Assembly (NCBI GenBank): GCA_013215945.1
Contig: JABSOM010000005.1
Location: 1 to 64,000, forward strand
Direction of reading: 5' to 3'
DNA from: Campylobacteraceae bacterium
Lineage (GTDB): Bacteria > Campylobacterota > Campylobacteria > Campylobacterales > Arcobacteraceae
DNA length: 64,000 bases
A program made the translations under genes and the position numbers. Positions 1 to 43,982 of the stretch are shown piece after piece. Each line of letters begins with the position of its first letter. The first letter of the stretch is position 1. The notes under the pieces were generated by a model, which saw only the letters and a program-made list of their open reading frames with translations, was not told where the DNA came from and did not search any database.

Positions 1-95
1 TTTTTAGTATTTAAAATACTAATATTCTCATTTTTAATTTCAATATAAACTTGTAATGTTGACTTAGATACATCAATTCCGATAAACTTATACAT
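1..95 (-). CDS. IS110-family transposase, N-terminal end (runs off window)
   Basis: Only the first 31 codons are inside the window. They read M-Y-K-F-I-G-I-D-V-S-K-S-T-L, which carries the IGIDVSK motif at the start of the DEDD (RuvC-like) domain of IS110-family transposases. A strong ribosome site (AGGAGG) lies 5 bases before the ATG at 95-93. The rest of the enzyme, including the C-terminal serine domain, is off the left edge, so integrity cannot be judged. IS110 enzymes move circular intermediates and use a non-coding guide (bridge) RNA encoded next to the gene. Confidence 0.8.
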   Translation of the reverse strand, partial: MYKFIGIDVSKSTLQVYIEIKNENISILNTK

Positions 96-300
96 GAAGG
101 CCTCCTAATTAATTTTAGAAGAGCTTGTTAGGACAGAGCTTCTGCTCTGTCTGATTTTAGAAACTAAATATAACTTCACCTCGCAAAATGCAATCTGGAA
201 ATATATCCGACTTAGTTGCCACTCAAGTTTTTAATTTAGCTATTACACTGGGGTCCAAACTCATTCAATAATTATTAAATGGTCTCAGGGGTACATCAAT
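96..300 (-). ncRNA. candidate IS110 left-end non-coding region (possible bridge RNA)
   Basis: This is untranslated DNA directly upstream of the IS110-type gene, the place where IS110-group elements encode their bridge RNA. It contains a perfect hairpin at 132-151 (GACAGAGC, loop TTCT, GCTCTGTC) just before the ribosome site. Other weaker pairings may exist. I cannot see the element boundary or the guide loops with certainty. The assignment rests on position plus one clear hairpin. Confidence 0.4.
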
Positions 301-354
301 ATACTAAAATTGACTCTTCTTTTTATTATAGCTTATTGCTATATTCCATTATAC

Positions 355-378
355 GAGGGGTAATAAATCCACTTTTAT
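355..378 (-). repeat. REP-like palindrome, degenerate copy
   Basis: On the minus strand it reads AAAAGTGGATTTATTACCCC, matching the left arm of the REP-like family found repeatedly in the window (AAAGTGGAGATTCA then CCCC/GGGG). A short piece of the composite-repeat terminus follows at 410-425. Confidence 0.5.
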
Positions 379-402: not shown

Positions 403-443
403 TTTATTGTAAGAGCTCATACATTTTCCTTTCGTTTTAATAA

Positions 444-1721: not shown

Positions 1722-1762
1722 TTCATTCTTTTTGGCTACATCTTTAATTGCTCTATAACAAA

Positions 1763-1813
1763 ATGGGGACAGTCACCTTTCTTGGTAAAAATAATAATGG
1801 TGACTGTCCCCAT
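1763..1813. repeat. inverted repeat with 15-bp perfect arms
   Basis: The arms ATGGGGACAGTCACC (1763-1777) and its exact complement (1799-1813) are separated by 21 bases. A third half site (TTGTCCCCATAG) follows at 1818-1829. It lies between the convergent araC-type gene and merF. It could act as a bidirectional terminator, but the motif matches the GACAGACACC repeat family, so a REP-type doublet is more likely. Confidence 0.7.
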
Positions 1814-1890
1814 AGTTTTGTCCCCATAGTTTTATTGACATGACATTTAGAAGTATAAGAAAATCATATATGAGTTGATAAACAATTAGA

Positions 1891-2164: not shown

Positions 2165-2225
2165 ATTCTGGAACAGTTTACCTAATTAACTAAATGATAA
2201 AATGCGTATACTTTCACTGGAATTT
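2165..2225 (-). repeat. intergenic repeat (TTTAGTTAATTAGGTAAACTG type)
   Basis: The minus strand carries CATTTAGTTAATTAGGTAAA followed by CTGTTCCAGAATT. Similar sequences occur at 41453-41505 and, more weakly, at 39331-39372. This copy lies exactly where the toxin reading frame next to it loses homology. Confidence 0.6.
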
Positions 2226-2728: not shown

Positions 2729-3284
2729 AGAGCTCATACAAAGTACCTTTGCGCTTTTTTCTTTTTCTTAATTGTCAGAAAAAGAAACAAAAAGAAGCAA
2801 CTGACGAGTTGATAAAGCCCTTCGGGTGCCTAAATATTTTTATTTGTTAACTGGGCTGTGGAACTCGTTAAAATGTGCTAGAGAGCACATTTCTTTACAC
2901 TCAAATAGTCCTCGCCTTTTTCCGTTAAAAAATAAAAATATTTAGCTTTCTCAAAGTCAGGGAAAGAGCCGTTGGGAATGTGGTTTTTTATTAGATTTAA
3001 TTATCTCTTATATTTTTACGTTCAAGAGAAAAAATCATTAGTGAAATGTGGAGCGTGGTTCTGACTTTGTTGAAGCCGAGCGTTTATTTTTTGTTTCTGA
3101 ACAGCCTGAGGACTGTTTGACCGTTAAGAAAGGTGCTTTAATGCACGTTTTAGGGAGTTCCACAAGGCAGAAACACAAAATAACAAGTGAGGGAAGCTCC
3201 GCCTTCAACAACCGTCAGTTGCTTTCTTGTTTCTTCTTTTCTATAAAAGAAGAAAAAAAACGAATGCGCTAGCTTTCATGAGCA
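2729..3284. repeat. composite repeat element, copy 1 (A half then B half)
   Basis: A roughly 555-bp non-coding element. The A half (about 2729-2980) starts at AGCTCATACAAAGTACCTTT and the B half (about 3040-3284) ends at GCGCTAGCTTTCATGAGC. The two halves resemble each other in inverted orientation: both contain AAGCAACTGACG or its complement, a conserved small hairpin (for example AAATGTGCT-AGAG-AGCACATTT at 2872-2893), TCCTC and CTTTTTCCG blocks, and a CAAAGTCAG block near the centre. An inverted copy is at 40209-40771 and a half copy at 43223-43479. Confidence 0.8.
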
Positions 3285-3384
3285 CTAGAATTATCACTTT
3301 CTAATAAAGGTAGAAGTATAGAAGAATGTATACTCATTAGGAAAAAAATAGCTGCTCTCTTTGTTTAAAAAAAGATATATAGTT

Positions 3385-5220
3385 TCACTTTAGAGCGTTT
3401 ACAACAACATTATTTCTACCTGAATTTTTGGCTTGATAGAGTCCATCATCAGCTCGTTTTAGAGCATCGTTGATATTTGTTTCTTTTTCTATATCTACTT
3501 GAGCTACACCTAAACTTATTGTGAATTTAAAACGTTCATTTGATGGAAGCGTCATTCTTGATGATTCTACAAGTATACGTATTTTTTCAGCTACTACAGC
3601 TGTAGCGTCAAGTGCGGTGTATGGCAGTAATATGATAAATTCTTCGCCCCCATACCTACAAATAATATCACTTTTTCTTTGACTTTCAATGAGTATACGA
3701 GATAATGAAATTATGACATCATCACCAAATTGATGTCCGTATGTGTCATTTACATTTTTAAACTTATCAATATCAATCATAATGATTGACAAATTCTCTT
3801 TTTTTCTTTTAGATAAAGCTACTATACTTTTTGATATCTCGGCAAAATATCTTCTGTTATATAACGTAGTCATAGGGTCAGTAATTGTCAATAGCTTTAA
3901 TTCTTTAAGTAATAATTCTCTTTCTTCTACTAAAGCACTTAGTTTATTATTTGATTCTGTTAAGTTCTTTGTTCTATCTTCTATTTTTTTTTCTAAAATG
4001 ATTTCATTTTTATCTTTCAATTCTAAAAGTTCATTTTGTATCTTAAATTTTTCACTTTGAAATATATAAAATCTATTGGTAAGAACCAGTGTAAAAAATA
4101 ATATCTCAAAAAATGAACCAAATAAGAAAGAGTATCTATTTATATCACTGTTTTCAATCCACCCATTTGCCATAGCTGACATTAAAGACATACTTACCAT
4201 GTAAACGCTCATAGCGAAAAGATAGTATTTGGTATTAATATCATTATTTTTTCTTAAAATATAGATAGCTACTGAAAATAAAACTAAAAATAAAACAGAA
4301 GCTAATGTATTCATAATTTCAAACCACGGCTCAAAGCTAAAAACAATAAGAATAGCTAATACTCCAAAAATATATCCAAAAATATTTAAAGGTTTATATA
4401 GTTTAGGTAAGTGTTTTTTCACATTTAAAAATTCTGAGGAAAAGAGAATTAAGAACATTATAAACATAGGTGTTACCATGAGAAATTTATAAAAAAATTG
4501 ATAAACTGGGGTATATAAGATCAATCCGCCGTAAGCAGCTGCCCATAAAGTATAAAAAAATGTATATCCACTATAATAAAGATACACACGCTCTTTTAAT
4601 CTAAAATAAATAAATAAATTTATTAATGTAATAGTGAAGATTGCTCCAAGATAAAACATATATAAAATATCATTAGAATGTCCATGTATCGAGTTGAAAT
4701 ACTCTTTTTTATAAATCTCAAACTCTCCAGAAGTAGTAAGTTTAGAGTTTCCTTTTATATAAAAAGTTTGTATTTGATTGGGTTTTATTTTTAGATGAAA
4801 TGTGGGATTGTGATTTAAAACCTCTCTTTGCTTGAAGGGTAGTATTAAACCATTTTTCTCTTTTTCCCAAGAGTTATTTACTTTTTTATAAAGGGTCATC
4901 TCGTGATAATATGCTTCACTAAAATTTAAAATAAAGTCTTCATATAAACTGTGGTTTTTAATTACAAACCTGAACCAAATATTTCCTTTTTCATGTCCAA
5001 ATGTAAATTGACTTGGTATTTTTTCAAAGGATTTAGTCTCAATGTTTTCAATCGTAAGTTTTTTTGAACTGTCATAAAACTTTTCTAAAATAAAATTACT
5101 TTTTTTATCAATATTTTTATCTAAAATAATATTTGAAAAAAGAGTGTTTATAAATAATAAAACAAATAATAGAATTCTCAATTTGTACCTTTTAAGGACA
5201 TGCCATGATTTATAATACAT
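3385..5220 (-). CDS. membrane diguanylate cyclase (7TMR-DISM sensor plus GGDEF)
   Basis: Layout of the 611 residues: an N-terminal hydrophobic segment (about 13-30), an extracytoplasmic beta-rich domain (about 45-180, 7TMR-DISMED2 type), seven membrane helices (about 185-385), a coiled coil (about 390-435) and a GGDEF domain (about 440-611). The active-site motif is intact as GGEEF (524-528) and is preceded by an RxxD inhibitory site (515-518), so it should make c-di-GMP with product feedback. A TTG at 5181-5179 has a better ribosome site (AAAAGG) than the ATG used here and would give a tidier signal anchor. It stands alone, not in an operon. Confidence 0.9.
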   Translation of the reverse strand: MYYKSWHVLKRYKLRILLFVLLFINTLFSNIILDKNIDKKSNFILEKFYDSSKKLTIENIETKSFEKIPSQFTFGHEKGNIWFRFVIKNHSLYEDFILNFSEAYYHEMTLYKKVNNSWEKEKNGLILPFKQREVLNHNPTFHLKIKPNQIQTFYIKGNSKLTTSGEFEIYKKEYFNSIHGHSNDILYMFYLGAIFTITLINLFIYFRLKERVYLYYSGYTFFYTLWAAAYGGLILYTPVYQFFYKFLMVTPMFIMFLILFSSEFLNVKKHLPKLYKPLNIFGYIFGVLAILIVFSFEPWFEIMNTLASVLFLVLFSVAIYILRKNNDINTKYYLFAMSVYMVSMSLMSAMANGWIENSDINRYSFLFGSFFEILFFTLVLTNRFYIFQSEKFKIQNELLELKDKNEIILEKKIEDRTKNLTESNNKLSALVEERELLLKELKLLTITDPMTTLYNRRYFAEISKSIVALSKRKKENLSIIMIDIDKFKNVNDTYGHQFGDDVIISLSRILIESQRKSDIICRYGGEEFIILLPYTALDATAVVAEKIRILVESSRMTLPSNERFKFTISLGVAQVDIEKETNINDALKRADDGLYQAKNSGRNNVVVNALK

Positions 5221-5306: not shown

Positions 5307-5575
5307 TTACACGCTGGGGGTTGAATCTCCACTTTTGATACAATTTCTTTTATATTTTTTGTTAAAGTATTGTGAATAGTTAGAATTAATTACTCTCATA
5401 AAAGAAGATAAGTTTTCTTTTTTTGTTTCTATTAATAAATGATAGTGATTATCCATTAAAACATAAGTATGAAGAATAACATTGTCTCTTAAAGCTATTT
5501 TATTTATAATTTTAAGAAGCATATCTTTATCATTATTGTGGTTAAATATATTACATCTATTTCACCCCCAGGGGT
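5307..5575 (-). pseudogene. REP-associated tyrosine transposase (RAYT) remnant
   Basis: The open stretch 5522-5307 contains the Y1 transposase signature HTYVLMDNHYHLLIET (HxH metal site) and a downstream YSQYFNKKYKR, where the nucleophile tyrosine normally sits. In-frame codons before the ATG (RCNIFNHNNDKD) extend the homology, but a stop cuts it. Full RAYTs are about 150-230 aa, so both ends are lost. Each end abuts a REP-like palindrome, at 5313-5337 and 5560-5578, linking that repeat family to this enzyme type. Confidence 0.75.
5313..5337 (-). repeat. REP-like palindrome at 3' end of RAYT remnant
   Basis: The minus strand reads AAAAGTGGAGATTCAACCCC then CAGCGT. It encodes the artificial C-terminus (SGDSTPSV) of the remnant frame. 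Confidence 0.65.
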
Positions 5576-40208: not shown

Positions 40209-40771
40209 AGAGCTCGTGAAAGCTAGCGCATTCGTTTTTTTTCTTCTTTTCTTGAAAAGAAGAAACAAGAAAGCAACTGACGGTTGTTGAAGGCGGAGCT
40301 TCCCTCACTTGTTATTTTGTGTTTCTAACTTGCGGAACTCCCTAAAACGTGCATTAAAGCACCTTTCTTTACGGTCAAACAGTCCTCAGTTTTTTCCGAA
40401 ATACAAAATAAACGCTCGGCTTCAACAAAGTCAGAATCACGCTCCACGTTTTTCTTAAAATATTTTCTCTTTTTAAAGTAAAGATATAAGAAATAAATAA
40501 ATCAAAGAGCAAACTTTCAATCCCCACGGCTCTTTCCCTGACTTTGATAAAGCTAAATCTTTTTATTTTTTAGCGGAAAAAGGTGAAAACTGTTAGAACG
40601 TAAAGAAATGTGCTCTTTAGCACGTTTTAGTGAGTTTTTGAACCTAGCTAACAAATAAGAATATTTAGGCACCCGAAGGGCTTTATCAACTCGTCAGTTG
40701 CTTCTTTTTGTTTCTTTTTCTGACAATTAAGAAAAAGAAAAAAGCGCAAAGGTTACTTTGTATGAGCTATT
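40209..40771. repeat. composite repeat element, copy 2 (inverted: B then A)
   Basis: An inverted copy of the element at 2729-3284. It starts TAAGAGCTCGTGAAAGCTAG (B terminus) and ends GGTTACTTTGTATGAGCT (A terminus). The internal hairpins are kept with sequence changes, for example AATGTGCT-CTTT-AGCAC near 40608-40625. I see no ORF shared with copy 1 that would explain conservation. Confidence 0.8.
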
Positions 40772-40792
40772 TAATACATTTAAGAATTATTG

Positions 40793-41352: not shown

Positions 41353-41412
41353 TGAGATACTTGCAAAGGACACTTTGTATGAGCGCTTAAAATATATTGA
41401 TAATTACCATAA

Positions 41413-41452: not shown

Positions 41453-41505
41453 TGACAACATATTCATTTAATGATTTAGTTAATTAGGTAAACTGTCACC
41501 GGAAT
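41453..41505 (+). repeat. intergenic repeat with GGTGACA/TGTCACC ends
   Basis: GGTGACA (41453-41459) and TGTCACC (41494-41500) enclose TTTAGTTAATTAGGTAAAC. This is the best copy of a family also seen at 2165-2225 and 39331-39372. Confidence 0.6.
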
Positions 41506-42224: not shown

Positions 42225-42330
42225 CTTCACAGAGAGTGCAATCACAGCGAGTTTTTGAGCCTAACTAACAAATAAAGATATTTAAGTTTATCAACTCGGA
42301 AGTTGCTTCTATTTAGATACAAGTATGATT
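42225..42330 (-). repeat. degenerate half of the composite repeat
   Basis: Blocks GAGTTTTTGAGCCTAACTAA, then AAGATATTTAAG and ATCAACTCGGAAGTTGCTTC, keep the order of the A half of 40540-40715 but with deletions. Confidence 0.5.
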
Positions 42331-42420
42331 TCGTGTTTTTTTTTGAGAATTAAAAATATGATGAGGGAATGAAATGACTAAATTCTGCTTGCAGACCAAA
42401 AAGCGAAAAGGCTACTACTT

Positions 42421-42433
42421 GGTGCCTGACACC
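42421..42433. repeat. short palindrome GGTGCCTGACACC
   Basis: Same family as 390-402. It lies 13 bases from the REP-like palindrome at 42446. Confidence 0.5.
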
Positions 42434-42445
42434 TTTTCTCAAATA

Positions 42446-43171: not shown

Positions 43172-43201
43172 AGGGTTTACTGCCTCTGGGGTGTAAATTT
43201 T
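43172..43201 (+). repeat. REP-like palindrome, partial
   Basis: AGGGTTTACTGCCTCTGGGG then TGTAAATTTT, about 20 bases outside the inner end of composite half copy 3. Confidence 0.5.
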
Positions 43202-43222
43202 AAGAAATAAATAAAGAATAAA

Positions 43223-43479
43223 AATTCATTCCCTACGGCTCTTTCCCTGACTTTGATAAAGCTAAATGTTTTTATTTTTTAACGGAAAAAGGCGAGGACT
43301 GTTCGAGCGTGAAGAAATGTGCTCTTTAGCACATTTTAGTAGGTTCCACAGCCTAGTTAAACAATAAAAATCTTTAGGTACCCGAAGGGCTTTATCAACT
43401 CGTCAGTTGCTTCTTTTTGTTTCTTTTTCTGACAATTAAGAAAAAGAAAAAAGCGCAAAGTCACTTTGTATGAGCTATT
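43223..43479. repeat. composite repeat element, copy 3 (A half only)
   Basis: From ATTCATTCCCTACGGCTC to TCACTTTGTATGAGCTATT. It matches the A half of copy 2 closely, including the hairpin AATGTGCT-CTTT-AGCACATT (43316-43335). The B half is missing, which shows that A can exist alone. Confidence 0.75.
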
Positions 43480-43982
43480 ACATATAAAAGTGAAGATTCA
43501 TTCTCAGGTATTGATGCCAGAAAGCTTCCCACACAACACAGAGCTGATTCATTTACGGTATAGCCTGAACTCCCTTTCATTTTTCCATCCCCAGGATATA
43601 TGTATCGTACTTCGCTAAATAAGTTAGCATGCTTACAAAGTATGTCTTCAAGGTTTATCGAATATTTGCTCGAAATTGATTCGGAAAGCCAATTTTTAAG
43701 CTCTTGGGGGAGATAATTATAGACACCAATAAGGTCATGTCCCTTAACGTGCTCTACTTTTACGCTATTGATTTTACTAGGTATACTTTTTGATGTAGTT
43801 ATCGTTTTTTTTACTCGAAGGCTCTTGAGCATCAATTCTATACTGAATGCTAACAAAACATAGTATGGTGAATTTGAATAGTGAACAGGATGCTCCTTCA
43901 GTACAGCAGCTGAATCAAAAAATTTCTTCCCCTCGTAATGAAGCATGTGATCGAAACTAAAATCATCTTTAACTACTGCCAC
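43461..43982 (-). CDS. HEPN-like hypothetical protein, 173 aa, 3' end overrun by repeat
   Basis: A GTG start with a perfect ribosome site (AAAAGGAGG). The segment about 15-58 (YEGKKFFDSAAVLKEHP, SPYYVLLAFSIELMLKSLRV) resembles the HEPN-type helical domain of small RNA- or nucleotide-related proteins. The rest is unrecognised. The last residues (about 159-173, PENESSLLYVIAHTK) are encoded by a REP-like palindrome and the composite-repeat end, so the native C-terminus has been lost. Base composition is clearly richer in G+C than the neighbours, suggesting transfer. Confidence 0.6.
   Translation of the reverse strand: MAVVKDDFSFDHMLHYEGKKFFDSAAVLKEHPVHYSNSPYYVLLAFSIELMLKSLRVKKTITTSKSIPSKINSVKVEHVKGHDLIGVYNYLPQELKNWLSESISSKYSINLEDILCKHANLFSEVRYIYPGDGKMKGSSGYTVNESALCCVGSFLASIPENESSLLYVIAHTK
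43485..43509 (+). repeat. REP-like palindrome inside the 3' end of a gene
   Basis: AAAAGTGAAGATTCATTCTC then AGG. It lies a few bases outside the A terminus of copy 3, as at 2695-2724, and forms the last codons of the HEPN-like gene. Confidence 0.6.

What the first reader, a model, noticed from the sequence alone, without database searches (positions are those of the whole stretch)
2729..3284. Undescribed composite repeat made of two mutually inverted halves
The element recurs inverted at 40209-40771 and as a single half at 43223-43479, with a degenerate half at 42225-42330. The A and B halves resemble each other in inverted orientation. Both keep AAGCAACTGACG and a small hairpin whose arms vary together (TGTGCT/AGCACA, CGTGC/GCACG). 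A piece with the A terminus is followed outward by a REP-like palindrome in nearly every occurrence (near 355-425, 2695, 40793, 41413, 43485). No protein is shared. It looks like a non-autonomous mobile or structured-RNA element.
Basis: seen in the sequence. Interest (0 to 1): 0.62.

Follow-up and report, generated by a model that had tools for sequence, protein, structure and literature searches.

The report
Folded paired repeat targeted by IS110
This ~560-base non-coding repeat of Arcobacter-like bacteria is two inverted halves that each keep the same folded shape across genera, and it turns out to be a favoured landing site of RNA-guided IS110 jumping genes whose guide sequences match it.

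Summary
Window 2730-3285 and 40209-40770 are full copies, and 43195-43487 is a single half. The genome has 43 halves. Each half carries a 170-nt core that folds into a long rod: 92-93% of cells are paired, up to 44 of 47 pairs show double changes, and covariation is about three times that of shuffles. Two half types, inverted to each other, are conserved as a pair across Arcobacteraceae genera; one tree branch separates the halves of 46 of 53 composites. The half alone occurs in at least one other Campylobacterales family. There are no Rfam, phage or plasmid matches. Copies up to 97% identical lie at unrelated sites, so the element spreads, but no mobilizing enzyme or target duplication was found. 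The main new result: one IS110 subfamily lands inside it. All nine copies in repeat-bearing genomes sit inside a half, at CT cores, and their bridge-RNA target guides match those sites (1 of 720 guide-target pairings as good). Three copies in repeat-free genomes sit elsewhere, with guides that fit there. I read it as a non-autonomous, BIME/MITE-like mobile repeat with a conserved single-strand fold. "REP outward in nearly every copy" is overstated (13 of 31 A halves).

The parts
2730..3285 (.). full composite (A half, centre, inverted B half); ends GAGCTC...GAGCAC
2739..2751 (+). A terminal hairpin CAAAGTACCTTTG
   Evidence: sequence; hairpin arms vary together between copies and genera, not counted statistically
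2761..2784 (+). A second hairpin CTTTTTCTTAATTGTCAGAAAAAG
2793..2962 (+). A half core, 170-nt rod (P1-P5)
   Evidence: R1 hit 183.6 bits, E 9.7e-35; covariation
2963..3058 (.). AT-rich centre between the two halves
3059..3226 (-). B half core, 170-nt rod
   Evidence: R1 hit 181.8 bits, E 2.3e-34
40209..40770 (.). second full composite, inverted relative to the first
40269..40436 (+). B half core of second copy
40536..40705 (-). A half core of second copy
43195..43487 (-). solo A half (core 43245-43414)
42225..42415 (.). degenerate half remnant, with a small insert (ATGAGGGAATGAAATGACTAAATTCTGCTTGCAGACC) also seen inside other halves
   Evidence: weak
41360..41387 (-). isolated A terminus (CTCATACAAAGTGTCCTTTGC)
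   Evidence: sequence
411..430 (+). isolated A terminus scar (AAGAGCTCATACATTTTCC)
   Evidence: sequence; a like scar in G001
1..355 (-). 5' part of an IS110-type element (transposase start codon at 95-93, non-coding left end with target loop); it sits in the REP-like repeat R3, target GATTTATTACCCCT, guide GTACCCCT at 280-297. Not part of the repeat, but shows the same targeting
   Evidence: the window ORF is too short for a Pfam test, so family by sequence resemblance

Best explanation
The element is a non-autonomous, mobile intergenic repeat of Campylobacterales. Its unit is the half: a terminal hairpin, a second hairpin and a 170-nt rod P1-P5; the rod is kept by compensatory change, so the half works as a folded single strand (shown for the rod). 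In Arcobacteraceae two diverged units, A and B, sit tail to tail and are inherited and copied as one ~560-bp element with fixed outer ends (shown). I infer that an unidentified enzyme acting in trans recognises the folded ends and copies or moves the composite, and that solo halves are broken or single-ended products (not shown). Whatever moves it, the conserved strand between P4 and P5 has become a recurrent landing pad for IS110-family transposons: the target-binding loop of their bridge RNA carries a left guide matching ..TGCGGAACT, ..TATGAAACT or ..AGCCTGAGAC and a right guide matching the other side of a CT core, and they insert exactly there (shown by sequence; recombination itself not tested).
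For: Fold: 92.4% cells paired, 32/47 pairs with double changes in 62 halves; 93.0%, 44/47, covariation 0.484 vs 0.147 shuffled and at most 0.086 slid in 116 halves (that alignment was fitted to the model). Pairing conserved: in the complete genome G017 most hits are +/- pairs with 55-115 bp between; a tree branch with support 0.87 splits 46/53 composites. Spread: 43, 43, 39 and 28 halves in G000, G001, G017, G033; copies 97% identical 190 kb apart with unrelated flanks and sharp ends. Range: an exact-pattern scan of 84,980 species finds 30 stretches, all in Arcobacter-type or Campylobacterales records, 0 viral; weaker or shorter solo halves in other families of the order. IS110: Pfam PF01548/PF02371; 12 copies located; 9/9 in repeat-bearing genomes lie in halves, 3/3 in repeat-free genomes do not; own-guide match 6-8 of 8 on the left side, diagonal sum 43, reached by 1 of 720 permutations; interrupted versus intact orthologous composite G111/G112.
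Against: No mobilizing enzyme: genomes with many copies can lack Y1 transposases (G011, G104). No target-site duplication seen at 15 G017 copies (by eye). Orthologous sites in G001 are not clean empty sites but cassette-like indels and scars, which also fit recombination between repeats. Transcription and RNA function untested; G-U versus A-C counts (107 vs 125) name no strand.
Confidence: 0.6

Rival explanations
1. BIME-like 3' element: the halves are functional RNAs or transcript ends placed after genes (stability, termination, regulation), and are spread only by homologous recombination and gene conversion.
For: In 10 of 14 solo halves the gene on the centre side runs towards the half; composites are rarely between divergent genes (1 of 11); avoidance of promoters is typical of REP/BIME. 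Near-identical copies beside a repeated block in G031 that reads as rRNA fit gene conversion.
Against: 10 of 14 is weak (about p 0.09 one-sided; rough ORF calls). No terminator-like U run after the fold. Sharp ends with unrelated flanks at many sites need a copying step. Strand asymmetry absent in the larger set.
Confidence: 0.25
2. The halves are boundary sites of a cassette system: inverted halves bracket cargo (type I restriction system, DUF3427 helicase) and recombine to exchange it, like an integron or a compound transposon.
For: Type I hsdMSR lies between inverted halves in G017 and G033; NUDIX plus DUF3427 helicase in G001; arrays of unrelated genes separated by A halves in G000 C2.
Against: The real attC sites of the own-genome integron are a different repeat (TATAACAA...GTTATAT). 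The hsd locus is one orthologous event with shared flanks. No recombinase lies with the cargo; most composites have no cargo.
Confidence: 0.12
3. Simple MITE: internally deleted remnant of one DNA transposon still encoded in these genomes.
For: No ORF over 74 aa, short inverted ends, high copy number.
Against: No transposase gene bounded by these ends was found in the loci read; no target duplication; the 170-nt fold is conserved far beyond what a transposase end is known to need.
Confidence: 0.15

Closest known systems
REP/BIME repeats (with RAYT transposases) as IS110 targets
   Same: Intergenic, palindromic, inverted pairs, and hit site-specifically by IS110-family elements such as IS621, and by ISPpu9 and ISPa11 (PMC1525189, PMC11208160)
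   Different: Here the unit is ~250 nt with a 170-nt covarying rod, not a 20-40 nt palindrome; A and B are two long-diverged types; copy number does not follow Y1/RAYT genes
IS621 and other IS110 elements with bridge RNA (seekRNA)
   Same: LTG/RTG target loop in the left non-coding end, CT core, DEDD and Transposase_20 domains (PMC11208160, PMC11187229)
   Different: A subfamily whose natural guides are seen retuned to three different places or variants of one structured repeat, and to unrelated sites in repeat-free genomes
MITEs, ERIC/IRU elements
   Same: Non-coding, high copy, inverted ends, restricted to one bacterial group
   Different: No parent transposon and no target duplication found; fold conserved across genera
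Integron attC sites
   Same: Folded, palindromic, repeated, found near a cassette array in this genome
   Different: Lacks the attC core pair; the genome has separate true attC sites

Membership tests
MITE | no coding capacity, high copy | tested here: met
   longest ORF 74 aa; 43 halves
MITE | terminal inverted repeats | tested here: met
   AAGAGCTC at both ends in G000; CTCWTGAAG in G017; short
MITE | target-site duplication | tested here: inconclusive
   none evident by eye at 11 G000 and 15 G017 copies
MITE | ends shared with an autonomous transposon | tested here: inconclusive
REP/BIME | 20-40 nt palindromic unit | tested here: not met
   unit about 250 nt with 170-nt rod
REP/BIME | association with RAYT (Y1) transposase | tested here: not met
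   Y1 found in 27/104 genomes without clear relation to repeat count, absent in repeat-rich G011 and G104
Integron attC | cassette site with inverted core sites | tested here: not met
   own-genome attC is another repeat; halves lie mostly outside arrays
Rfam RNA family | match above gathering score | tested here: not met
IS110 bridge-RNA element (for the IS inside the repeat) | DEDD transposase with Transposase_20 domain | tested here: met
IS110 bridge-RNA element (for the IS inside the repeat) | LTG and RTG match the inserted target at a CT core | tested here: met
   (left guide 6-8 of 8; right guide 3-6 of 6 where readable)
IS110 bridge-RNA element (for the IS inside the repeat) | guide change redirects insertion | not testable with these tools
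   needs a recombination assay

The most novel reading that the evidence does not exclude
A large structured repeat family of Campylobacterales, with two co-inherited half types, acts as a dedicated genomic docking platform: the repeat provides folded, expendable targets in many genomes, and IS110 elements track its sequence drift by retuning their bridge-RNA guides, a natural guide-target co-evolution that can be read across species.
Probability: 0.3. Interest if true: 0.75.

Novelty: new variant of a known kind. Interest (0 to 1): 0.55.

Why it matters
It adds an apparently undescribed, strongly covarying ~170-nt fold present in tens of copies per genome. It also gives a natural series of IS110 bridge-RNA guides with their own insertion sites, one intact and filled at the same locus, useful for learning target rules and for seeing how programmable transposons keep up with drifting targets.

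Tried and rejected
Halves as integron attC: rejected, the true attC is another repeat. RAYT/Y1 as mobilizer by co-occurrence: not supported. Decayed coding sequence: rejected, no long or shared frame and pairing conserved instead. Known RNA: no Rfam match at gathering score; matches at E<10 are chance-level. Identical copies in G031 as recent transposition: rejected, they adjoin a repeated block that reads as rRNA, and one site is a tandem array. Strand choice by G-U versus A-C: first set 38 vs 76, larger set 107 vs 125, so no conclusion. G000 versus G001 orthologous sites: messy, with scars and cassette-like indels. Autonomous parent between widely spaced halves: found only cargo (hsdMSR, helicase). 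Plasmid and phage records: no match. Literature search found no description of this repeat, but only open-access full text was searched; a 2019 paper analysed Arcobacter sp. L intergenic regions (PMC6429828) and its unnamed motifs could not be compared.

Full report
What was checked. The window is the first 64 kb of contig C5 of a 3.24-Mb genome. The reported element is real: 2720-3290 hits itself, 40209-40776 inverted at 89% and 43195-43487 as a single half. AAGCAACTGACG is present at all five cores.

Anatomy. Reading each half from its outer end to the centre there is a terminal hairpin, a second hairpin (in the window copy CTTTTTCTTAATTGTCAGAAAAAG), and then a 170-nt core. I aligned 62 cores from ten genomes and wrote one structure with 47 pairs: P1, P2 with a small side hairpin, P3, P4, P5. 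It holds in 92.4% of cells; 32 pairs have changes on both sides; the covariation score is 0.368 against 0.130 for shuffles and at most 0.120 when the partner is slid. A covariance model then gave 117 cores from a wider set: 93.0% paired, 44 of 47 pairs with double changes, 0.484 against 0.147. That second alignment was fitted to the model, so the first count is the cleaner one. Both window halves fold better than shuffles (z -3.7 and -3.4). The terminal hairpins also vary with pairing kept between copies, but I did not count this.

Copies and range. The model finds 43 halves in the own genome, 43 in G001, 39 in G017 and 28 in G033, and matches in 35 of 104 family genomes, 8 of 20 genera. In the complete genome G017 most are + then - pairs with 55-115 bp between them. 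A tree of 117 halves has a branch (support 0.87) that puts the two halves of 46 of 53 composites on opposite sides: left and right types are old. An exact pattern over 84,980 species hits only Arcobacter-type or Campylobacterales records, and no viral contig. The model, more sensitive, finds shorter solo halves in another family of the order (G502, E 3e-15, same hairpin, same CCCTTCGGG side loop, same P3/P4) and weak ones in a few further families. So the half is the basic unit and the composite is the Arcobacteraceae form.

Mobility. Copies in G017 are up to 97% identical with unrelated flanks and sharp ends. Of the six G000 composites whose flanks I compared with G001, four had a syntenic flank and none had the same intact composite there, but the sites are messy: one keeps only a 13-base end scar, one lacks a 1.2-kb stretch with a gene and the element, one has only the A half, one has remnants around other DNA. 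I saw no target duplication. No enzyme was found: Y1/RAYT genes do not follow copy number, and wide-spaced halves enclose cargo (type I restriction system in G017 and G033; DUF3427 helicase in G001), not a transposase.

IS110 landing. In G102, G111 and G002 an IS110-family element (PF01548 and PF02371) interrupts a half. At one locus the composite is intact in G112 and split in G111 by 1.28 kb at one point. A conserved motif of the IS left end located 12 copies in the family. All nine in genomes holding the repeat, including one in the own genome (contig C9, L062), are inside halves; the three in genomes without model hits are not. The sites have a CT core, as in IS621 (PMC11208160). In the left end, where IS621 has its target-binding loop, each copy carries a segment like the left target and one complementary to the right target: TTGCGGAACT for ..TGCGGAACT| in G111/G112, GTATGAAACT for ..ATATGAAACT| in the own genome, AGCCTGAGAC for ..AGCCCGAAAC| in G002, and unrelated ones in G003, G070 and G119 that fit their own sites. 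Left matches are 6-8 of 8; among six distinct guides the true pairing scores 43 and only that one of 720 pairings reaches it. The guides were aligned by hand on the core, so this is strong but not blind; the right-hand match is weaker (3-6 of 6). The window's own IS110-type element at 1-355 sits in the REP-like repeat R3 (GATTTATTACCCCT|) and its left guide reads GTACCCCT. IS110 insertion into REPs is known (PMC1525189, PMC11208160); what is new here is the target and the visible retuning of guides.

Judgement. Shown: repeat, fold, paired half types, range, IS110 insertion and guide match. Inferred: that the folded strand is what an unknown enzyme copies. Not settled: RNA or DNA, mobilizer, cost or benefit to the host. 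I file it under no known family; it works most like a BIME or MITE and fails the size and RAYT tests for REP/BIME.

Noticed in passing
L194 (G000:C2:204500-224400), attC-like sites at 4230, 7225, 8379, 12632: A degenerate chromosomal integron: intI fragment at G000:C2:209037-209294 with premature stops and four attC-like sites; integron integrases over the curated cut-off in 16 of 104 Arcobacteraceae genomes.
   Followed up: partly
G000:C2:217356-223195 (L060): Next to the integron array, an array of unrelated genes each separated by an A half plus another palindrome (GACAGTATACC...GTATACTGTC, also near window 2170-2225 and 41465-41502), looking like a second cassette-type array.
   Followed up: partly
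L121 and L122: Complete type I restriction system bracketed by inverted halves of the same type in two species, same flanks.
   Followed up: partly
L061:3604-3797, L055 near 1530-1580, L136, L131: The same ~24-nt insert CTTGTGCTTGCACTCTCTNTGAG appears inside halves at different places and in different genera; a second ~35-nt insert (GGTCTGCAAGCAGAATTTAGTCATTACATTCCGGCAT) sits in the second hairpin.
   Followed up: no
L106-L112 (G031): Solo halves adjoin a repeated block that reads as rRNA operon ends in G031, and at one other site form a 556-nt tandem array.
   Followed up: partly
window 5346-5561: Fragment of a Y1/RAYT-type transposase on the minus strand; two further full ones at G000:C7:119968-122730, the latter about 190 bases from a solo A half.
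   Followed up: no
window 1740-1840, 42418-42435, 375-400: Other short REP-like palindromes (GGTGACTGTCCCC, GGTGCCTGACACC) scattered in intergenic spaces.
   Followed up: no
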